Shown here: positions 31,886 to 41,043 of the stretch, in pieces | Layout of the letters: each line of letters begins with the position of its first letter | How positions within the stretch are numbered: position 1 is the first letter of the stretch | Source: Gimesia benthica | GTDB lineage: Bacteria; Planctomycetota; Planctomycetia; Planctomycetales; Planctomycetaceae | Reading direction: 5' to 3' | Length of the DNA: 64,000 bases | Assembly: GCF_009720525.1 (NCBI RefSeq) | Contig: NZ_CP043930.1 | Coordinates: forward strand, 7,514,001-7,578,000 | Made by a program: the position numbers and the translations under genes | Notes under the pieces: generated by a model | What the model saw: only the letters and a program-made list of their open reading frames with translations | Told to the model about the DNA's origin: nothing | Database searches by the model: none

Positions 31886-34800
31886 TTATCGCTCAACTCT
31901 AAGACGTTCTGCTTCTTCATCTTCTCGTTCAGCGTCTATTTCAAATCTTCTAGCTAGTTCTCGGAATGCTTTTGACAAGTTTGGAAATCGAGTCTTAAAT
32001 TCTGTCGCTAAGTTGCTGTATTGGTTTACCAGTGCACGTTCCAATGTCCCTCCTTCTAAGGGATCTCTGCAAGTTACTCCTCGACTGTTATAGATACCGA
32101 GTGTAAAACCTTTGAATATGCTTGTTGAATTAAAATGTTCCAGAATGTTGCAAATTGAAAGGGGGGGCCACATTTTACATCCTTCCTTAGAATGGCGAGA
32201 AAGTAGCTCACCAATTTGATGATCTGCAACACGAATTCTATCTTCTTTTTTTGCAAGTAATCTTACTTCCGAAATCCAATTCGTTAAATATAGCTCATCA
32301 ATCTGCCCGTTTTCTTTCGTTCCCGGAAGTGTACTAAATGCATTTATCAAAGAATGTCCATGTCTTATCATTTTGTGATCTAAATCTGTTAATTCTAGAT
32401 CTCTATTTATTACGTTTTCATTTCGGAATAAGATTTTTAATAAGTCAATGAATTGGCTAGGATTTTGTTGTAGTGCATTTATTAAGGTCATAGGTTCAGT
32501 TCGTGAATGTGGCCCTTCAAGAAAAGGTAAGTACCCCCATTCAATTGCTGCGAGTCTAGTAGTATTTTCTTTATCACTTGCTTGAAGATGCTTAACTAAC
32601 TTTTGGACACAATGTGCCTTTAATTTATTTATTTCTTCCTGATTCGTTTCAGTAGATAACGCCGATTCGAGGGTCAAGAAAATTATATCCTCTTCAATAT
32701 CTATTTTCTCTAACGCAAAAGAGAGTAAATTAATTGCTGTGAAAGGACGACATGCCCGAAGTAATTTCTCTTGTACATAACATACGTCTCTGTGATTTTC
32801 ATCATGAAGAAAAGCATCACAATTCAACCAGTACTCATCACAAACTGATATAGGTAAATTTGTTTCCATCCAGTCCCAGATGGAACGGTTAAACGGTACT
32901 GCACAGAGCATCTTTGCGGCCTGTAGATCTGAATAAGAATTGAACTGTATCTCTCTAAAAAAAGAGAATTCTTTAGAGTTGAAAGCACCAGCGATATATC
33001 CTGCCGCGAATTCCAAAAGTCGAATATTGTCTGATATAACAAACTCCGATAATTCAATTTCCTCTACATTTAAGAGCGAGTTCGATCCAATGACCCATCC
33101 AATGGAAGTTGCATTGTGTATTCTTTCGAGCAGACGATTTACCCCATACCAACCCTGTGTGGATGTGATATTCCTAAGGGCTTCTAATTGCTTTTTATTT
33201 AATTCCACATAGTATTTTTTATAGTCACCACTTTCATCAATATCAGGTAGATCTGGATGAATACCGAAAAGCCATTCGTTGAGATCCACAGGATCGTCTG
33301 GTTGAATTCGCTTACTAATATCTATTAATATGTTGATTGTATTCTCATTCAGTGACAAAGAGCGTTTAGGATGCGTTTGGTGAAGACATATTAGTTCTCT
33401 AAGTGCTTTCCAAAGTATTGCTCTACCATGAAGGTCTTGGCAATGTAATGAAATCAATTCCAGACGTTGTATTGCTTTGTGAGTCGTTTCTTCGTTTATC
33501 TTGAAAATACCATTAATGACCTTGGCCCATTTTTCTGGTGATTCTGACGCAGTTTCAAATATTATCTCTGCAATTTGGTGTAGATAACCCGGGGCATCGG
33601 TATGTGCTTTGATTTGAGACCAGCCATTAGCCCAGTCGCGCCATCTAGGCTTTGCCGTACTACTTAAGCTAATCCCATAATACTTGGGGACTTGCTCAAT
33701 CAATAAATTCCACCCTACTTCAGGATGCTTGAGAACAAGTTGCCTTAAGATAGTAATTCTTTCTTCAATAGTGGCATTTGTTTGTGGTATTTGCCAGAAG
33801 AATATGGCTTTCAATGTCTCCGAAGGTCTGTTGCTCATGTTGTTTGGGAGAATGTTTTCATATTTGATTAACATGGCGAGAATGTCTGCTACTTGGCTTA
33901 AATAGTTGGGGCTCCACGCAATGATTTCTAAGGCCCATAGAAGTCCACAGTGTCGTGAATGCGAGAAGATATGGTTACTGTTAGGTGAAAAAAGACTCGG
34001 TAGCAGTGGGTTGTCGGAGTTTAAGTCATCACTTATTCTAGAAAGAAGAAAATCAGGGTCTGCTTCAGCAAACAGACTAAGCTGACTAGAAAATGTTGCC
34101 CAACGCTTTTTGGAACCATTATTAGGTAGAATGCTACTAAGGACTTTTCTTACGCTTACAGCAAAATTCAGTTTAGTCCCATAACTTGTTGCGGCAGGAT
34201 AAGATGTCATTATTGCCAGTGACTCAATAATACCCTGGCGTAATTCACTAGAGAGTGAATGGGTTTTGCCAAAGATGTTTGCCATCCATTGCTCATCATC
34301 CTTGAGATCTAATGCGGGGTTGGTTTCCTCTAGCACAACTATTGCAAGATCTTCAAAACGCTCTAGCATTTTACGAGTAATTGAACTACTCAGTAGACAC
34401 CATGCATCTTCTCGAGAGTGGATTACAAGGTTATTACCATATCTCAGGAAAAGAGGCTCATCGCTATCACACCACTTAGTAGTATATTCTTCGATACGCT
34501 CACGTGAGATTCCCATAAAATCTTCAATACAAATCAGATCAATGGGATGATTCGTTTTAAAGATATTGTCATTTCTTTCTATTTGATCAGGGTCTAAATC
34601 AACCCATCCACCTAGTAGAGCAAATGGAGCTAGTTTGGATCGGTATTTCTCGTTAGCCCATTCTGGGAAATCTGTAAGTGGGTGTTCTGTGATTAAGCGT
34701 TTTAGGACATTTGAGCTACCACAACATGCTCGCGAAAGCGACCTTGCCCTAAGGTTCTCAAAGCCACATTCTGCTAATGTCTTGGCGAGAGACGAAGACT

Positions 34801-35722
34801 CCTGGCGAGGAAGAAATAGTTCACGAGTACCAGATGATGCACTGCGATTTCTGCAAATTCCAACATGATGTCCACGAGACACGGCTTCTGCAACATCTTC
34901 AACAGTTAATGAAAGAGACACGGTTGCGATAAGTGTTAAAGAGGTGCCAATATTTGTTAGGTCTCTCCACGCTTTGAGGCTCTCAACAAAAACCATCCTA
35001 TTCAACTTAGGATGAGCTTCTGCCTGTTCTTCAACTAACGCAGAAAGGAAGTCTAGGACATCTTTTGAGTTGCCACTTCTAAGAAGTAATGAACTGGGTT
35101 CTCCCTCAATCCAGTCTAGTAAGTCCTCACAACACTTAATCCTACTAACGAGTATCACTTGGGGGGAAATTGGAGGCGACGAAATTTGTTTGAGTGCATT
35201 CCATTGCGTCTTCGGATCGAAAACTCCATCGGGTCTTCGCCCCACTACAGTTGAAAACCATATATCAACAGCAGGGCAACGTTCTATCCAATGTTCTAAA
35301 TCATTTGCATCGATCGCTATTACATTTTTCCAATTACTTTGTTCCAGAGCTTCCTTGGCCCATGAATCCTTCGCACGCCATTCTCTGGGAGTTACAAATA
35401 CAAATGTTGTTTGTTTTTGGATATCTACTGAAGTCGTTTTAGTCCTCTTACTGAAGTCTTCATTAGCTTTAGCTTTTTTCTTTTCTTTTGAAGTTCCAAT
35501 CTCCCACACACTTATACCCTTGGGTACATATTGGGTGTGTTCTGCTGAGTTAACATTGCCATCAAATCCTGGCCGTTGAATCTGTTCGTAAGCGGGAAAG
35601 TTTACCACTGAGTCTGGAGGGACTACCTCCCATACAAGCCGACGAAGCAAATGAGGTAGTTGGTGCCTAGCTTCTATAGTGTCTGCCCAAGAGACAATAT
35701 CAAGAGCTCGAGTCCAGCTCAT
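31886..35722 (-). CDS. Large AT-rich orphan protein; candidate defence gene
   Basis: A 1278-residue protein of no family I can name. Residues about 1-160 look like a small alpha/beta domain: RLVWEVVPPDSVVNFPAY, RPGFDGNV, ISVWEIGTSKEKKK, FVFVTPREWRAKDSW, then LEHWIERCPAVDIWFSTVVG. The FDG...VWEIGTSK arrangement recalls the PD-(D/E)xK nuclease core of Mrr-like enzymes, although the exact ExK is not present. Residues 190-500 may be a degenerate NTPase-like core (SLLLRSGNSKDVLDFLSALV, with no Walker A). The rest is mostly alpha-helical, repeat-like. Three sampled 60-base lines contain 30-37% G+C against 58-60% in neighbouring genes, indicating transfer. AAGGAAGG precedes the ATG. A role in antiphage defence is inference. 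Confidence 0.75.
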   Translation of the reverse strand: MSWTRALDIVSWADTIEARHQLPHLLRRLVWEVVPPDSVVNFPAYEQIQRPGFDGNVNSAEHTQYVPKGISVWEIGTSKEKKKAKANEDFSKRTKTTSVDIQKQTTFVFVTPREWRAKDSWAKEALEQSNWKNVIAIDANDLEHWIERCPAVDIWFSTVVGRRPDGVFDPKTQWNALKQISSPPISPQVILVSRIKCCEDLLDWIEGEPSSLLLRSGNSKDVLDFLSALVEEQAEAHPKLNRMVFVESLKAWRDLTNIGTSLTLIATVSLSLTVEDVAEAVSRGHHVGICRNRSASSGTRELFLPRQESSSLAKTLAECGFENLRARSLSRACCGSSNVLKRLITEHPLTDFPEWANEKYRSKLAPFALLGGWVDLDPDQIERNDNIFKTNHPIDLICIEDFMGISRERIEEYTTKWCDSDEPLFLRYGNNLVIHSREDAWCLLSSSITRKMLERFEDLAIVVLEETNPALDLKDDEQWMANIFGKTHSLSSELRQGIIESLAIMTSYPAATSYGTKLNFAVSVRKVLSSILPNNGSKKRWATFSSQLSLFAEADPDFLLSRISDDLNSDNPLLPSLFSPNSNHIFSHSRHCGLLWALEIIAWSPNYLSQVADILAMLIKYENILPNNMSNRPSETLKAIFFWQIPQTNATIEERITILRQLVLKHPEVGWNLLIEQVPKYYGISLSSTAKPRWRDWANGWSQIKAHTDAPGYLHQIAEIIFETASESPEKWAKVINGIFKINEETTHKAIQRLELISLHCQDLHGRAILWKALRELICLHQTHPKRSLSLNENTINILIDISKRIQPDDPVDLNEWLFGIHPDLPDIDESGDYKKYYVELNKKQLEALRNITSTQGWYGVNRLLERIHNATSIGWVIGSNSLLNVEEIELSEFVISDNIRLLEFAAGYIAGAFNSKEFSFFREIQFNSYSDLQAAKMLCAVPFNRSIWDWMETNLPISVCDEYWLNCDAFLHDENHRDVCYVQEKLLRACRPFTAINLLSFALEKIDIEEDIIFLTLESALSTETNQEEINKLKAHCVQKLVKHLQASDKENTTRLAAIEWGYLPFLEGPHSRTEPMTLINALQQNPSQFIDLLKILFRNENVINRDLELTDLDHKMIRHGHSLINAFSTLPGTKENGQIDELYLTNWISEVRLLAKKEDRIRVADHQIGELLSRHSKEGCKMWPPLSICNILEHFNSTSIFKGFTLGIYNSRGVTCRDPLEGGTLERALVNQYSNLATEFKTRFPNLSKAFRELARRFEIDAEREDEEAERLRVER

Positions 35723-35885: not shown

Positions 35886-37373
35886 CTATCCCGACATCCG
35901 CCTGCTCACTTCTTTCGCACTGGGACGTTGGTCCGGCTCCATCGCCAGTAGATCAATCAGCTCGCTGCGGAACTCAGGGGGAATCTTCTCGGTCAGCGAT
36001 TCGACGAAATCAGGTCTCCATAAAGCAGAGATGATTTCCAGTGCCGACATGTCGCGCATTAGTGATGCACCACACAGCATCTCGACGAAAATTAATCCCA
36101 GGGAGAAGATGTCGCTGGCGGCACTCAAGCGAGCGCCGCGGGCCTGTTCGGGAGACATATAAGCCGGGGTGCCAGAGATCCCGTTGGAGTCCGCGGCCGA
36201 GACGGTGGCATCATCGACGGGATTGGAATTGAGTACCACGGTTTCCTCTAAATCCAGCTCTGCTGCTTCTGGTTCCGTAGCGACGTCTGTTTTCGTCGTG
36301 ACCGTAAACTGCGGTCCGGTATCGGAACCGGCTCTGGTGACGACCTCCTGATGTCGAAAAGAACGGGCCAGCCCGAAGTCGACAATCACCGGTTCGTCTC
36401 CTCCTCGCAGCAGAATATTCGCCGTCTTCAGGTCTCCGTGCACGATTCCTTTTTCGTGAGCGGCAGCCAGTCCCAATGCAATCTGCCGCGCGATCCTGCG
36501 GAATTGACTGAGGTCGAATCCGCTGTCAATCAGATCTGCTAGTGAGCCACCATCAATGTACTCCATGACAATTGTCGGTATGGTGTCAATCGTATCCACA
36601 GAATAAATCGTGCAGACATTCGGGTGCTGAATACCGGCTGCCGACCGTGCCTCCCTCAGGAGTTGTTTTTCAGTCTGATCATCCTGTTTCACGATCACTT
36701 TGAGCGCGACTTGACGTGCGAGACGTAAGTCTTCGGCTGCAAAAACCTGCCCGAAAGCACCCCGGCCCAACTCGCGTTCAATGCGGTAATGGCCGAGAAC
36801 CCGGCCCGGCTTCAAAAGCGACACGGTATCCAGCACACCATCGGCACGTTTCCAGTTAGCCGGACAGAGTCCTCCGGACTGTAAGGCGTCTAAGATACGC
36901 AGGACGTCTTGAACATTCCGCCCCACACTCAAGTCATAACTCGCAGCAAAACGCAGGATCCCTTCCGGGTCAATCAGAAACAATCCGCGATTGGGCAGAC
37001 CGTCGACCTCCCGCCAGACACCAAAATACTGGCAGAGCGCGCCTTGGGGATCAGAGGCCAGGGGAAAGCGGAGTCCTTCGACACCTCCATCGTTCGCGGG
37101 GGTTTTCAGCCACTGCGCGTGAGTCTCGAGGGAGTCGATGCTCACCCCCAAGAGATCGCAGTTGAGTTGCTCAAACTGCGGTTTCTCAGCGCTGAATCCT
37201 GTGAGTTCGGTGGGGCAGACAAAGGAGAAGTCATGTGGATAGAAGATCAGCGCCAGCCAGCGTCCCTGGTAATCTGCGGACTGAATCTGCGCGTGTTGCA
37301 GGTCAGGGGTAACTGCGCTCAATTGAAATGGTCGAAGCCGTGAACCAACGACACAGTTTTGTACGGAGTTCAT
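35886..37373 (-). CDS. Peroxiredoxin-Ser/Thr kinase fusion protein
   Basis: A 495-residue protein with two complete domains. Residues 1-180 are a typical 2-Cys peroxiredoxin: DFSFVCPTEL with peroxidatic Cys53, GLPNRGLFLIDPEGILRF, and resolving Cys170 in GGLCPANW. Residues 190-495 are a Hanks-type kinase: glycine loop LGRGAFGQV (202-210), Lys225 in VALKV, Glu241, HGDLKTANILL with catalytic Asp314, Lys316 and Asn319, DFG at 332-334 and SPE at 407-409. The usual HRD is HGD, so this is a non-RD kinase. The DFG-SPE segment is about 75 residues, twice the usual length. I infer a kinase controlled by peroxide through the fused redox domain. It lies next to tRNA-Lys, alone in its transcript. Confidence 0.92.
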   Translation of the reverse strand: MNSVQNCVVGSRLRPFQLSAVTPDLQHAQIQSADYQGRWLALIFYPHDFSFVCPTELTGFSAEKPQFEQLNCDLLGVSIDSLETHAQWLKTPANDGGVEGLRFPLASDPQGALCQYFGVWREVDGLPNRGLFLIDPEGILRFAASYDLSVGRNVQDVLRILDALQSGGLCPANWKRADGVLDTVSLLKPGRVLGHYRIERELGRGAFGQVFAAEDLRLARQVALKVIVKQDDQTEKQLLREARSAAGIQHPNVCTIYSVDTIDTIPTIVMEYIDGGSLADLIDSGFDLSQFRRIARQIALGLAAAHEKGIVHGDLKTANILLRGGDEPVIVDFGLARSFRHQEVVTRAGSDTGPQFTVTTKTDVATEPEAAELDLEETVVLNSNPVDDATVSAADSNGISGTPAYMSPEQARGARLSAASDIFSLGLIFVEMLCGASLMRDMSALEIISALWRPDFVESLTEKIPPEFRSELIDLLAMEPDQRPSAKEVSRRMSG

Positions 37374-37500
37374 TCAATCTCCCCTGACACTTCAGACTCA
37401 AAGACGCGATTCGAACGCAGGCATTCCAGTTTAACAGGAATGCCTTAAACTCTCGTCATAACCAGCGAGGTCAAATGAAACAAGCAGGCCATAAAACAAA

Positions 37501-37531: not shown

Positions 37532-37537
37532 AAAAAA

Positions 37538-37610
<73 letters not shown>

Positions 37611-37885
37611 ATTTGTTCTCACTGTATTTTGATCGGCCGGAGCATTTATTGCGGCATGGTTGGTGTCCGCTGCTCGACAGGCCGTTTGATGACTGAGTCA
37701 GGATAATAGCAACAACCACAATCACTTCACAACGTTACGGGCAAAAAAAATCTCTGTAAATTCATATTTTCTCAACCCTTAGTCGTTCAGACGCCTCTGC
37801 TCCCTGACAGGTTCGCTTATTCCTGCCCCTGAACGTTTTTTAAGTGACTGCAGGGCCGCAGTTCACAGCCCTTTTCGTCTCCTGA

Positions 37886-39469
37886 CTACGCTCCGTAATC
37901 GCCCTGTGTGTACATTCCATCAATATAACGCCACTGGGCCGGGTTAGAATTCTTTGGTTGTAGAGCCGCCGGCAGACGTCCGGGGCGGACATTATCGTAG
38001 CACTGCAGCATCGAGAACCGGTGGATTGCCGCCGGAATTCCCACCGAAGTGAAGACCGGATGTCCCGTCGAAGGGAAAGGGCCGCCATGATTCATCGCCG
38101 GGCTGACGGCCACGCCTGTCGGCATCTTGTCGTTCAGCAGTCGGCCCACCTTCTGACGCAGGGCCGGGGCGACCAGATCATACAGCAAGTCATCCTCACC
38201 AGTGGTCTGGCTGTAAATGCAGCCGGTCAGGTTCCCCTCCAAACACTCGGCGATCTGGGCCAGTTCCTCATCGCTCTCCGCGACGACAAACAGCGAACTG
38301 TTGCCGAACGCCTCGGCCTGTAAAGCTTCGGGATCTTTCAGGAAGGCACTCCCCGAGACCCGCAGCAGTGTGTTCGCACAGGAGAACCCGTCGCCTTCGG
38401 TGGAAGTCCCACCGGTGACGAGTGTCGCCCCTGCTTCCTGAATCGCGGTAATACCGGACAGGAAGCCACGCTGTACTCCTTCGCTCAGCAGCACGCCGGC
38501 CGGGGCCGCTTCGAACTGCTGTTTGACCTGGTCGATGAAGGTCTCCGCAGCGTCCCCGGCTTTGAGGACCACCAGCCCCGGATTCGTACAGAACTGACCG
38601 GTTCCCATCAGGCAGCTCCCCTTGAATTCCTCCGCGATCTCCGCACTTCGCTCGGCCAGAGCTCCCGGCAGAACGAAGACCGGGTTGATACTGGAGAGCT
38701 CCAGGTAGACCGGCTTGCCTGCTTTGTCGGCCGCTTCCTTGATTGTCAGTCCCGCACTCCGTCCGCCGGTATAACCGATGGCACCCATCAGCGGGTGAGA
38801 TACGAGCCGGCAGCCGTCCGAATGGCTCGTTCTGTAGATCAACTGCACGAAACCAGCGGGCATATCGGTCGCTTTCGCGGCTGCGTCGGCGGCTTCACCG
38901 AAGATGCGTGTGGTTTCCGGGTGCGACGAATGTCCCTTGGCGATCACCGGGTTCCCCGCGGCAACCGCGGCGGCGAAATCACCCCCAGCGATGCTGTTGA
39001 ACGCAAACGGGAAGTTGTTCGGACCAAACACGGTCACGGGACCAATCGGACCGAACATTGAACTGATGCCGGTCGCGGTGTCGATGGTCGGCTGTGCCCA
39101 GGAACCTTCGCGGGCATGATTGGCGGCCTGACGCAGCTGATTCGTCGTTCGCGGCAGCTCGCCGTCACGCAGCCGCGGTGATTCGGGATAGCCGGTCTCC
39201 GCATGAGCGGCGTCCACCAGGGCGTCGGCGCGGGCTTCGATCTCGTTCGCGTACGCTTCCAGGAAGGCGGCAAACCGTTCGCCCGGCCAGCCCCGCATTG
39301 CTTTGGACGCCTCAGCGGCCGCGATGATGGCAGATTCGATTTCGTCCCAGGGGCTGACGGGGAACAGCGGGGCCAGCGTTTCGCCGGTCGCGGGGTTCAC
39401 TCCCTGAAACGTCTGAGTCCCTGATGAGGTCGTCCATTCTCCGTTAATCAGAACCGGTTGTGTTTCCAT
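37886..39469 (-). CDS. Alpha-ketoglutaric semialdehyde-type dehydrogenase
   Basis: A 527-residue ALDH-superfamily enzyme of the longer ketoglutarate-semialdehyde (2,5-dioxovalerate) dehydrogenase type, which oxidises 2,5-dioxopentanoate to 2-oxoglutarate with NADP+ in oxidative pentose, hydroxyproline and glucarate catabolism. Visible features are SMFGPIGPVTVFGPNNFPFA, VIAKGHSSHPETTRIF, the cofactor loop GYTGGRSAG, the general base in YLELSSINPVF and the catalytic Cys in GTGQFCTNPGLVV. The FGxxNFPxA opening and FCTNPG are typical of this subfamily. It is divergent from the flavoprotein gene at 39571. The subfamily call is good; which sugar acid pathway it serves cannot be told here. Confidence 0.87.
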   Translation of the reverse strand: METQPVLINGEWTTSSGTQTFQGVNPATGETLAPLFPVSPWDEIESAIIAAAEASKAMRGWPGERFAAFLEAYANEIEARADALVDAAHAETGYPESPRLRDGELPRTTNQLRQAANHAREGSWAQPTIDTATGISSMFGPIGPVTVFGPNNFPFAFNSIAGGDFAAAVAAGNPVIAKGHSSHPETTRIFGEAADAAAKATDMPAGFVQLIYRTSHSDGCRLVSHPLMGAIGYTGGRSAGLTIKEAADKAGKPVYLELSSINPVFVLPGALAERSAEIAEEFKGSCLMGTGQFCTNPGLVVLKAGDAAETFIDQVKQQFEAAPAGVLLSEGVQRGFLSGITAIQEAGATLVTGGTSTEGDGFSCANTLLRVSGSAFLKDPEALQAEAFGNSSLFVVAESDEELAQIAECLEGNLTGCIYSQTTGEDDLLYDLVAPALRQKVGRLLNDKMPTGVAVSPAMNHGGPFPSTGHPVFTSVGIPAAIHRFSMLQCYDNVRPGRLPAALQPKNSNPAQWRYIDGMYTQGDYGA

Positions 39470-39570
39470 GATCTATCCTTTTTCAACCTGCTTTTTTGCG
39501 GGGCAATCAGTTAGTATGTGAAGCGTGTATTTCGTTTGTCTTTCGATTCGAGCAGAGGCAGTCCGCTCTG

Positions 39571-41043
39571 ATGCAGCAATTTGATGTGGTGATCCTGGGA
39601 GCCGGTTTCGGCGGCAGTCTGACGGCACTGTTGCTCGATCGCATCGGCCTCTCCGTCGCCCTGGTCGACCGCGGCACCCATCCCCGTTTCGCGATTGGGG
39701 AATCCTCCACGCCCGCCGCCGGCTATCTACTCCAGTCACTGGCTGCACAGTACGATCTTCCACAATTTGAGGCATTTTGCAAGTATGGGAGCTGGCAGCA
39801 GTCCCATCCCGACATCGGCTGCGGCGTCAAGCGGGGCTTCAGTTACTTTGCCCACACGCCGCATCAGCCCTTTCAGGCGCAGCCCGCGCACGGCAGCGAA
39901 CTGCTGGTGACCGCCAATCTCAGTGACACCCTCGCCGATACACATTGGTACCGGGCCGACGTCGATCACTGGTTCGCCCGGCAGGTAGCTGCGTCCGGCA
40001 TTCTCTATCAAGATCAGACCGAAGTTGAATTACAGCACAACCACCCGGGCTGGCAGATCCAGGGGACCCGATTCGGCGAACGCATTGACCTCCAGGCGAA
40101 CTTTCTGATCGACGCCACCGGGGCCGCGGGTATCGTTGCCCGCACGCTGGGAATTGAAGCAGAAACCGAATTCAAAACCCACTCGTCCGCGATCTTCGGG
40201 CATTTTCGCAATGTCGCTCCCTGGCAGACCATCCTGGACGGGCAGGGCATCTCGCGGGAAGATTATCCGTTCAACTCCGATCACAGCGCCCTGCATCATG
40301 TCCTCGATGAAGGCTGGATGTGGCAGCTGCGATTCAATAACGGCATCACCAGCACCGGCTTCGTTCTCGACGGTGAAACAGGGCAGCACAGCTGGGAAAC
40401 AATGCTGGATCGTTATCCCTCGATTAAAGCACAGTTCGCTGAAGCCGAATGCGTCGCCCCGGTAGACGGACTGCAGACCACCGGCCGCCTGCAGCGGGGC
40501 TGGAAAGAGTGTGCCGGGCCGGACTGGGCTCTGTTGCCTCACACCGCCGGTTTCATCGACCCGCTGCACAGCACGGGCATCGCCCATACGCTGTGCGGCA
40601 TCGAACGGCTCGTTACCATCCTGGAACAGCATACAGGGCAGGGGACGCTGACCGAAGCACTAGCCAACTATTCAGACTCGCTTCAAGTAGAACGCACGCT
40701 GATCGATACACTGGTTGCTTGCTGTTATCGCAGTCGGCACGATTTTGAACGATTCCGGCTGAGCACGCTCTTCTATTTCGCCGCTGCAACGAGCTATGAG
40801 CACCTCCGCTTTCACGAACAGCAGCGGCCCTGGCTCCTCTGTGCCGACGATGAACGTTTTCGACAGGCGGTCACCGACTGGTATGAGCTCGTTTCCCGCG
40901 AAGATCATCGCGCAGACCAAAAAACTGACTGGCTGCAGACAGCGCGTGAACTGCTCGCGCCCTGGGATCGGGTGGGGCTGTTTGAACCAGCGGTGCCCCA
41001 CATGTATTACTACACCGCGGCCCCGGAAGCGGAACCGCGGTGA
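39571..41043 (+). CDS. FAD-dependent halogenase-like oxidoreductase
   Basis: A 490-residue flavoprotein related to tryptophan halogenases. The FAD-binding GAGFGG is at residues 10-15, followed by RFAIGESSTPAAGYL, the halogenase-type GESS motif. Further along FCKYGSW aligns with the region of the halogenase active-site lysine, FLIDATGAAGIVAR is the second FAD motif, and IDPLHSTGIAHTL corresponds to the DPLFSSG-type loop. The WxWxIP motif diagnostic of true halogenases reads WMWQLR, so the isoleucine and proline are changed. Planctomycetes carry many halogenase-like flavoproteins of unknown product. The ATG at 39571 was chosen because FDVVILGAGFGG follows at the normal distance. It is divergent from the dehydrogenase gene. 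Confidence 0.75.
   Translation: MQQFDVVILGAGFGGSLTALLLDRIGLSVALVDRGTHPRFAIGESSTPAAGYLLQSLAAQYDLPQFEAFCKYGSWQQSHPDIGCGVKRGFSYFAHTPHQPFQAQPAHGSELLVTANLSDTLADTHWYRADVDHWFARQVAASGILYQDQTEVELQHNHPGWQIQGTRFGERIDLQANFLIDATGAAGIVARTLGIEAETEFKTHSSAIFGHFRNVAPWQTILDGQGISREDYPFNSDHSALHHVLDEGWMWQLRFNNGITSTGFVLDGETGQHSWETMLDRYPSIKAQFAEAECVAPVDGLQTTGRLQRGWKECAGPDWALLPHTAGFIDPLHSTGIAHTLCGIERLVTILEQHTGQGTLTEALANYSDSLQVERTLIDTLVACCYRSRHDFERFRLSTLFYFAAATSYEHLRFHEQQRPWLLCADDERFRQAVTDWYELVSREDHRADQKTDWLQTARELLAPWDRVGLFEPAVPHMYYYTAAPEAEPR

What the first reader, a model, noticed from the sequence alone, without database searches (positions are those of the whole stretch)
35886..37373. Peroxiredoxin fused to a Ser/Thr kinase: a candidate peroxide-sensing kinase
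One gene encodes a complete 2-Cys peroxiredoxin (Cys53 in FVCPTE, Cys170 in GGLCPANW) followed by a complete Hanks-type kinase (Lys225, Asp314, DFG 332). Both active sites are intact. Peroxiredoxins react with peroxide faster than most proteins and relay oxidation to partners, and here the partner is covalently attached. A kinase switched by oxidation, hyperoxidation or decamer assembly of its own peroxiredoxin is the simplest reading. The domains are seen directly; the switching is inference.
Basis: partly seen in the sequence, partly recalled or inferred. Interest (0 to 1): 0.75.

Follow-up and report, generated by a model that had tools for sequence, protein, structure and literature searches.

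The report
Peroxiredoxin–kinase fusion, sometimes a selenoprotein
One bacterial gene joins a complete peroxide-destroying enzyme to a complete signalling kinase; the same join is found in dozens of planctomycetes, and in a few the reactive cysteine appears to be replaced by selenocysteine, so it is a good candidate for a kinase that senses peroxide directly.

Summary
Confirmed, on the minus strand: 35886-37373 encodes a 495-aa protein, a typical 2-Cys peroxiredoxin (Prx; C53, C170) joined to a Ser/Thr kinase domain (K225, HGD312-314, DFG332). It is a family: 56 distinct fusion genes were found, nearly all in Planctomycetota. Each half forms one clade and the two trees share 27 of 49 splits (shuffles: at most 2), so one fusion event is the simplest history. 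In the 54 aligned, the peroxidatic position, C170, K225 and E241 never vary; H312, D314 and D332 are kept in all 52 that reach them. C170-to-glycine-loop is 33 residues in 52 of 54. (2) The fused kinases are non-RD (HGD 51 of 52), whereas 53 of 53 non-fused kinases examined read HRD. Best reading: a peroxide-sensing kinase gated through the Prx C-terminal segment. The hyperoxidation version is disfavoured (YF absent in 51 of 54). No biochemistry was found; the switch is inference.

The parts
35886..37373 (-). Peroxiredoxin–Ser/Thr kinase fusion gene, 495 aa
36828..37373 (-). Typical 2-Cys peroxiredoxin domain (aa 1-182)
   Evidence: Pfam AhpC-TSA 5.1e-31 over aa 14-142; thioredoxin peroxidase 2/Prx1 1.7e-44 over aa 5-178; Foldseek to Prx1
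37215..37217 (-). Peroxidatic Cys53 codon (TGC here; TGA in 4 relatives)
36864..36866 (-). Resolving Cys170 codon
36789..36863 (-). Junction aa 171-195, of nearly fixed length in the family (Cr to first Gly of the glycine loop 33 residues in 52 of 54, 34 in 2)
35889..36788 (-). Hanks-type kinase domain aa 196-495
   Evidence: Pfam Pkinase 6.2e-46; model
36699..36701 (-). Catalytic Lys225
36432..36440 (-). HGD catalytic loop (non-RD), aa 312-314
36372..36380 (-). DFG aa 332-334
36186..36362 (-). Low-confidence activation-segment insert aa 338-396; the DFG-to-APE distance varies widely in the family
37379..37385 (-). Shine-Dalgarno-like AGGGGAG

Best explanation
A one-protein peroxide-responsive kinase. 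SHOWN: an apparently complete typical 2-Cys Prx joined through a segment of nearly fixed length to a complete non-RD kinase; both catalytic sites are conserved across the family; in four relatives the peroxidatic codon is UGA. INFERRED: the Prx half dimerises like its class; peroxide oxidises C53 (or Sec), which pairs with C170 of the partner subunit; the C-terminal segment around C170 rearranges, as in typical 2-Cys Prxs. Because that segment leads after 25 residues into the first kinase strand, the rearrangement repositions or frees the kinase pair and changes its activity (more likely on than off, about 60:40). Thioredoxin-type reduction resets it. The lost HRD arginine means the usual activation-loop phosphorylation switch is weakened, leaving control to the attached Prx. 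Substrates are unknown.
For: Both active sites conserved. Cp–Cr 117 residues in 54 of 54 and Cr–Gly-loop 33 in 52 of 54, while DFG–APE ranges from 17 to 96. One clade for the Prx half (54 vs 56 stand-alone, SH-aLRT 100) and for the kinase half (52 vs 26, SH-aLRT 100); 27 of 49 splits shared, against a mean of 0.17 and a maximum of 2 in 200 label shuffles. HGD in 51 of 52 fused vs HRD in 26 of 26 and 27 of 27 non-fused. UGA at Cp in L077, L082, L090 and L163; hairpin at one place in 4 of 4 vs 0 of 51; SelA in all four genomes, tRNA-Sec in all four, SelB in the three searched. No neighbour shared across the family in the 45 loci compared. Purifying selection on both halves. Precedents in trans: yeast Tsa1–PKA (PMC7392609, passages) and Prdx1–ASK1 (PMC8300624, abstract).
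Against: No biochemical data; the direction of the switch is unknown. Conservation of both sites is also expected of a simple bifunctional enzyme. The model does not fix the domain arrangement (pTM 0.56; residues 168-181 under pLDDT 50). The junction is constant in length but not the most constrained in sequence: dN/dS 0.16-0.35 over 26 codons, above both domains. Non-RD kinases are usually weak, and a non-RD plant kinase still uses activation-loop phosphorylation (PMC8463890, passages). The gene is patchy: 6 of 16 other genomes of the genus, one of them with a stop inside, so it looks dispensable.
Confidence: 0.58

Rival explanations
1. The kinase controls the peroxidase: it phosphorylates its own Prx half (for example at T91, which aligns with Prx1 Thr90) and switches peroxide removal off, creating a local peroxide signal.
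For: Position 91 is Thr or Ser in 42 of 54 fusions. Phosphorylation of Prx1 Thr90 lowers peroxidase activity (PMC6406269, passages).
Against: 12 of 54 have no Thr/Ser at 91. The Prx1-type chains aligned have the same Thr-Pro without any kinase attached, so it is not a mark of the fusion.
Confidence: 0.14
2. The Prx half is only an assembly and protection module: it dimerises the kinase and removes peroxide nearby, without gating it.
For: Typical 2-Cys Prxs are dimers or decamers (established knowledge, not from a call), and proximity activates many kinases (likewise). Both sites conserved.
Against: A mere scaffold would not need Cp, Cr and R129 to be invariant or Cys replaced by Sec. A mere tether would not need a near-constant 33-residue link.
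Confidence: 0.16
3. A redox relay in cis: oxidised C53 passes its oxidation to a kinase cysteine (C254), rather than acting by rearrangement of the junction.
For: C254 is Cys in 50 of 54 fusions. [quoted passage not shown]
Against: A Cys at that place is also in 13 of 26 (4 not found by the motif) and 4 of 27 (3 not found) non-fused kinases, and it is not in the activation loop, where the redox cysteines of PKA, Ire-1 and Wis1 lie. Cr is invariant, which a relay would not need.
Confidence: 0.09
4. Artefact or chance read-through joining two neighbouring genes.
For: Only the G008 copy, which has an in-frame TAG between the halves.
Against: Same architecture in 56 distinct genes, several in named strains, one clade for each half, purifying selection.
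Confidence: 0.01

Closest known systems
Selenoprotein Prx fused to a PP2C-type phosphatase (Global Ocean Sampling, PMC2398784; passages seen)
   Same: A Sec/Cys Prx in one chain with a Ser/Thr phospho-signalling domain; described there as a novel fusion.
   Different: The partner is a phosphatase, not a kinase; the one use of the word kinase in that paper is in its reference list.
Typical 2-Cys peroxiredoxins (Prx1/AhpC class)
   Same: Cp, Cr and the Arg taken to be the active-site one (role recalled); closest solved structures are Prx1/Prx2-type.
   Different: The C-terminal tail after Cr is replaced by a kinase; YF motif absent in 51 of 54. Scores below the AhpC equivalog cut-off (113.5 vs 272).
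Bacterial Hanks-type kinases (PknB/StkP)
   Same: Kinase family and catalytic residues.
   Different: HGD instead of HRD; no room for PASTA repeats or an extracellular part in 495 aa; far below the PknB_PASTA cut-off (179.2 vs 450).
Yeast Tsa1–PKA (PMC7392609, passages) and human Prdx1–ASK1 (PMC8300624, abstract)
   Same: A 2-Cys Prx acts on a Ser/Thr kinase in response to H2O2.
   Different: Two separate proteins; here covalently joined. The PKA activation-loop Cys has no counterpart here.
Selenocysteine peroxiredoxin of Eubacterium acidaminophilum (cited in PMC13188914, passages); NCBIfam PrxU
   Same: Sec at the reactive position of a Prx, as in the four UGA relatives.
   Different: No kinase partner that I know of; the window protein scores 116.7 vs cut-off 270 for NF040737 and itself has Cys.

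Membership tests
Typical 2-Cys peroxiredoxin (Prx1/AhpC) | Peroxidatic Cys in its conserved loop and conserved Arg | tested here: met
   Position 53 (DFSFVCPTE) and R129 invariant in 54 of 54; position 53 coded by UGA in 3 of them
Typical 2-Cys peroxiredoxin (Prx1/AhpC) | Resolving Cys in the C-terminal segment | tested here: met
   C170 in 54 of 54
Typical 2-Cys peroxiredoxin (Prx1/AhpC) | Hyperoxidation-sensitive type: GGLG plus C-terminal YF | tested here: not met
   GG[LIV]G in 38 of 54 (window has GGVEG), YF between Cr and the glycine loop in 3 of 54
Typical 2-Cys peroxiredoxin (Prx1/AhpC) | Dimer/decamer, thioredoxin-type reduction | not testable with these tools
   needs protein
Hanks-type Ser/Thr kinase | Gly loop, VAxK, alphaC Glu, HxDxKxxN, DFG, APE-like | tested here: met
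   Pfam above cut-off; one of 52 rows (L086) lacks DFG
RD kinases | HRD arginine | tested here: not met
   HGD in the window and in 51 of the 52 fusions that reach the motif, HRD in one, L050
PknB/PASTA kinase equivalog (NF033483) | Score over curated cut-off 450 | tested here: not met
   179.2
AhpC equivalog (TIGR03137) | Score over curated cut-off 272 | tested here: not met
   113.5
Selenoprotein (four relatives, not the window) | In-frame UGA aligned with Cys, downstream hairpin, Sec machinery in genome | tested here: met
   SelB not searched in G478; incorporation itself not shown
Selenoprotein (window genome) | SelA, SelB, tRNA-Sec | tested here: not met
   no SelA at E<=1e-20; best SelB 168.9 vs 242.25; best tRNA-Sec 41.8 vs 47
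Peroxide-sensing kinase | Kinase activity changes with peroxide through Cp | not testable with these tools
   assay needed

The most novel reading that the evidence does not exclude
A class of soluble one-component peroxide receptor kinases in which a working peroxidase is the sensor: its local unfolding on disulfide formation is wired by a fixed-length link to a kinase that has given up the usual activation-loop arginine, and lineages retune the sensor by exchanging Cys for selenocysteine.
Probability: 0.42. Interest if true: 0.87.

Novelty: new variant of a known kind. Interest (0 to 1): 0.7.

Why it matters
How peroxiredoxins pass oxidation to kinases has been studied with complexes of two separate proteins (PMC7392609, PMC8300624). 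A natural fusion with conserved active sites and a near-constant link makes the question directly testable in one purified protein. The Cys/Sec relatives give natural variants for asking how sensor reactivity sets the signal, and the HGD switch gives a clear prediction about how the kinase is controlled. It would also give planctomycetes, whose genomes hold many kinases (46 Pkinase matches in this one), one kinase with a definite candidate ligand.

Tried and rejected
Rejected: chance ORF or assembly join (many genomes). Rejected: membership of the NCBIfam AhpC, PrxU or PknB equivalogs (scores far below cut-offs). Conserved partner gene: none shared by the family in the 45 loci L049-L093 (clustering of ORFs of 120 aa or more, flanks up to 6 kb and shorter at contig ends). 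The larger clusters there are ORFs overlapping the fusion itself; the widest real neighbour, HAD-phosphatase-like by eye, is in 6 of 45. Relay cysteine C254 considered and ranked low. Predicted domain packing not used: pTM 0.56, no coordinates in the box.

Ascertainment: one of the two peptide patterns contains the Cp cysteine, so Cp conservation in that set is partly built in; the best 80 of 430 confirmed stretches were kept. The profile and protein searches of whole genomes do not have this bias: their 19 fusion genomes (own + 9, six further, three) have Cys at Cp in 17 and TGA in 2; four of these (G101, G163, G245, G313) were read through named loci shown to encode the identical protein. 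The hairpin place (17 nt, 5-nt loop) was chosen after seeing three TGA genes; only L163 is a fresh test. The tRNA-Sec cut-off alone is not specific: 5 of 14 control genomes pass it, 2 of 14 at E<=1e-10; the four genomes here reach 6.1e-13 or better. SelB over cut-off: 2 of 14 controls; SelA: 1 of 14. The large trees are quick ones with SH-aLRT only and some long branches. The 53 non-fused kinases were chosen as best matches plus a few by position, not at random; two more kinases beside fusions (in L069, L081) also read HRD.

Rows dropped: L014, L017, L043, L045, L046, L048 (identical proteins to L062, L075, L064, L060, L081, L091) and the stop-broken L010; L038-L042 refetch places already held; truncated L087 and L092 left out of the kinase tree and L047's second kinase cut off; L161 is identical to L070. 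Start codons of relatives were picked by script; L163's start is arbitrary.

Literature: ten paper searches were answered and one was turned back. Seven looked for such a fusion and none listed a paper that I could tell describes one; I opened ten papers, by passages or outline only. PMC11032199 (planctomycete kinases) has no AhpC/peroxiredoxin/redoxin in its main text, but supplements could not be read, and InterPro architecture lists could not be checked.

Full report
WHAT IS THERE. The gene runs on the minus strand, 37373 down to 35886, 495 aa. Pfam sees AhpC-TSA over residues 14-142 (5.1e-31) and Pkinase from residue 196 (6.2e-46). The best solved relatives are thioredoxin peroxidase 2/Prx1 and, for the kinase, StkP and PknB. 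The window lies at 7514001-7578000 of a single-contig 8.03-Mb genome with 46 Pkinase matches; the closest stand-alone relative of the Prx half in that genome is at 46% identity. It is a planctomycete, probably of the Planctomycetaceae: G245, in the same family as the window, carries a fusion protein identical to that of the Thalassoglobus neptunius record, which is placed in Planctomycetaceae.

A FAMILY, NOT A ONE-OFF. Among 59 genomes of relatives, own included, ten carry the fusion: own, six of the 16 others in the genus (G003, G004, G007, G008, G012, G013; two of the 16 are only 74-76% complete) and three of another family. A profile search of 392 genomes of the phylum, own included, gave 12 genomes. 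A scan of the GTDB species genomes with the alignment gave 45 fusion loci, L049-L093, with a clean drop in E-value to stand-alone Prxs (2e-78 to 2e-49); the best 80 of 430 stretches were kept. They are Planctomycetota, except one Candidatus Zixiibacteriota record (L074) and three called only 'bacterium' (L077, L082, L086). Blastopirellula marina, Thalassoglobus neptunius, Rhodopirellula solitaria, Tautonia sociabilis, Paludisphaera soli and Aquisphaera insulae are among the named strains. A search of 95 genomes in the family of L090's genome gave three full fusions; the other 92 matched only through kinases. I count 56 distinct genes: the 54 of alignment A2 (no two identical), the stop-broken G008 copy and L163.

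BOTH ACTIVE SITES ARE KEPT. In A2, position 53, E56, R129, R152, C170, G203, G205, K225 and E241 are invariant in 54 of 54; H312, D314, K316, N319 and D332 in the 52 rows that reach them. Exceptions: L086 has DYT in place of DFG, and the G008 copy has an in-frame TAG after residue 229. Against four close orthologues dN/dS is 0.07-0.16 for the Prx and 0.10-0.18 for the kinase lobes, 0.03-0.42 for the activation-segment insert, and 0.16-0.35 for the short junction (26 codons, so noisy).

ONE FUSION EVENT. The 54 fused Prxs fall on one side of a branch against 56 stand-alone Prxs (SH-aLRT 100), and 52 fused kinases against 26 others (SH-aLRT 100). The two trees share 27 of 49 splits over 52 taxa; 200 label shuffles share 0.17 on average and at most 2. 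I read this as a single fusion followed by joint inheritance, with whole-gene transfer possible.

A FIXED LINK. Cp to Cr is 117 residues in 54 of 54. Cr to the first glycine of the glycine loop is 33 in 52 of 54 and 34 in two. By contrast the DFG-to-APE distance ranges from 17 (the degenerate L086; otherwise from 30) to 96 residues, and the C-tail also varies. In typical 2-Cys Prxs the segment around Cr unfolds when the disulfide forms (established knowledge, not from a call). In the model this is the least ordered part of the Prx half apart from the first residues (168-181, pLDDT under 50), and it leads into the first kinase strand at 196. This is the anatomical basis for the proposed gating. 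The model does not show the domain arrangement.

SELENOCYSTEINE IN FOUR RELATIVES. In L077, L082 and L090 the codon at the peroxidatic position is TGA, with the frame intact on both sides. A later search gave a fourth, L163 in G478. All four have a hairpin whose 5-nt loop starts 17 nt after the codon (stems of 8, 8, 7 and 5 pairs; loops CGUGA three times and GGUCG); 0 of 51 Cys relatives have even 4 pairs there. A small apical loop with a guanosine, immediately downstream of UGA, is what bacterial SECIS elements look like (PMC1088965, passages). Whole-stretch folding energy is less telling: z-scores -0.48, -0.92 and -2.39 for the first three. All four genomes have SelA (556-573 bits, cut-off 267.9) and tRNA-Sec (66.9-74.6 bits, cut-off 47); the first three have SelB over cut-off, and SelB was not searched in G478. 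The window genome and that of Blastopirellula marina (G433) have neither tRNA-Sec nor SelB over cut-off, and the window genome has no SelA match. Machinery alone is not proof: four genomes with Cys fusions (G434, G435, G436, G465) also have tRNA-Sec. In a tree of 29 fusions the four Sec genes and one Cys gene (L070) form one clade (97/95). The best tree needs two changes between Cys and Sec, but the well-supported branches force only one, so a single gain is not excluded.

A NON-RD KINASE. The catalytic loop reads HGD in 51 of the 52 fusions that reach it and HRD in one, L050. Of the non-fused kinases examined, 26 of 26 (25 from planctomycete genomes and one beside an acidobacterial Prx) and 27 of 27 read HRD, as do two that lie near fusions. 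Non-RD kinases are thought not to need activation-loop phosphorylation, though they tend to be weak and at least one still uses it (PMC8463890, passages). I infer that control passed from the activation loop to the attached Prx; this is inference.

WHAT THE EVIDENCE DISFAVOURS. The hyperoxidation sensitivity of typical 2-Cys Prxs is put down to GGLG and a C-terminal YF (PMC6406269, passages). Here YF is present between Cr and the glycine loop in 3 of 54, and GG[LIV]G in 38 of 54; the window protein has neither. A cis relay to C254 is weakened because that Cys is also common in non-fused kinases.

GENOME CONTEXT. In four genomes (own, G004, G008, G012) the gene starts just beyond a tRNA-Lys gene. 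In G009, which lacks the fusion, homology with the window's flank continues through the aldehyde dehydrogenase and the tRNA and stops about 45 bases beyond it. In G003, G007 and G013 the fusion lies elsewhere. So the gene is an accessory one, perhaps delivered at a tRNA site. No neighbour is shared across the family in the loci compared.

KNOWN OR NEW. The nearest published thing I saw is a selenoprotein Prx fused to a PP2C-type phosphatase in ocean metagenomes (PMC2398784, passages): the mirror image of this. Regulation of kinases by separate Prxs is known from yeast Tsa1–PKA (PMC7392609, passages) and human Prdx1–ASK1 (PMC8300624, abstract). I found no paper on a Prx–kinase fusion in the searches; the library is open-access only, and supplements were not readable. 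I call it a new variant of a known kind: a sensor-kinase fusion with an unusual, apparently enzymatically competent sensor.

VERDICT. Observation confirmed; sensor reading supported by anatomy and evolution but not shown; hyperoxidation version disfavoured; selenocysteine members are a new and checkable addition.

Noticed in passing
L077:2357-2359, L082:6082-6084, L090:6136-6138, L163:1636-1638: In-frame TGA exactly at the peroxidatic codon of the fused Prx, with a hairpin 17 nt downstream and Sec machinery in the genomes: putative selenoprotein kinases.
   Followed up: yes
window 37537-37611 and 35886-37373: The fusion sits directly beyond a tRNA-Lys gene; in G009 homology ends about 45 bases past that tRNA, as expected of an island or insertion site.
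   Followed up: partly
L010 (G008): The 94%-identical copy in G008 has an in-frame TAG between the Prx and kinase halves: pseudogene, error or split gene.
   Followed up: partly
L047:1480-3966: An 829-aa variant carries a further kinase domain (residues 548-808) after the first.
   Followed up: no
L086:5995-7305: Fusion with shortened activation segment and DYT instead of DFG: possible pseudokinase or assembly fault.
   Followed up: no
window 31886-35722 (-): A 1278-aa neighbouring ORF with no Pfam match at E<=0.001.
   Followed up: no
window 39496-41043 (+): A tryptophan-halogenase-like FAD protein near an aldehyde dehydrogenase (37886-39469, -).
   Followed up: no
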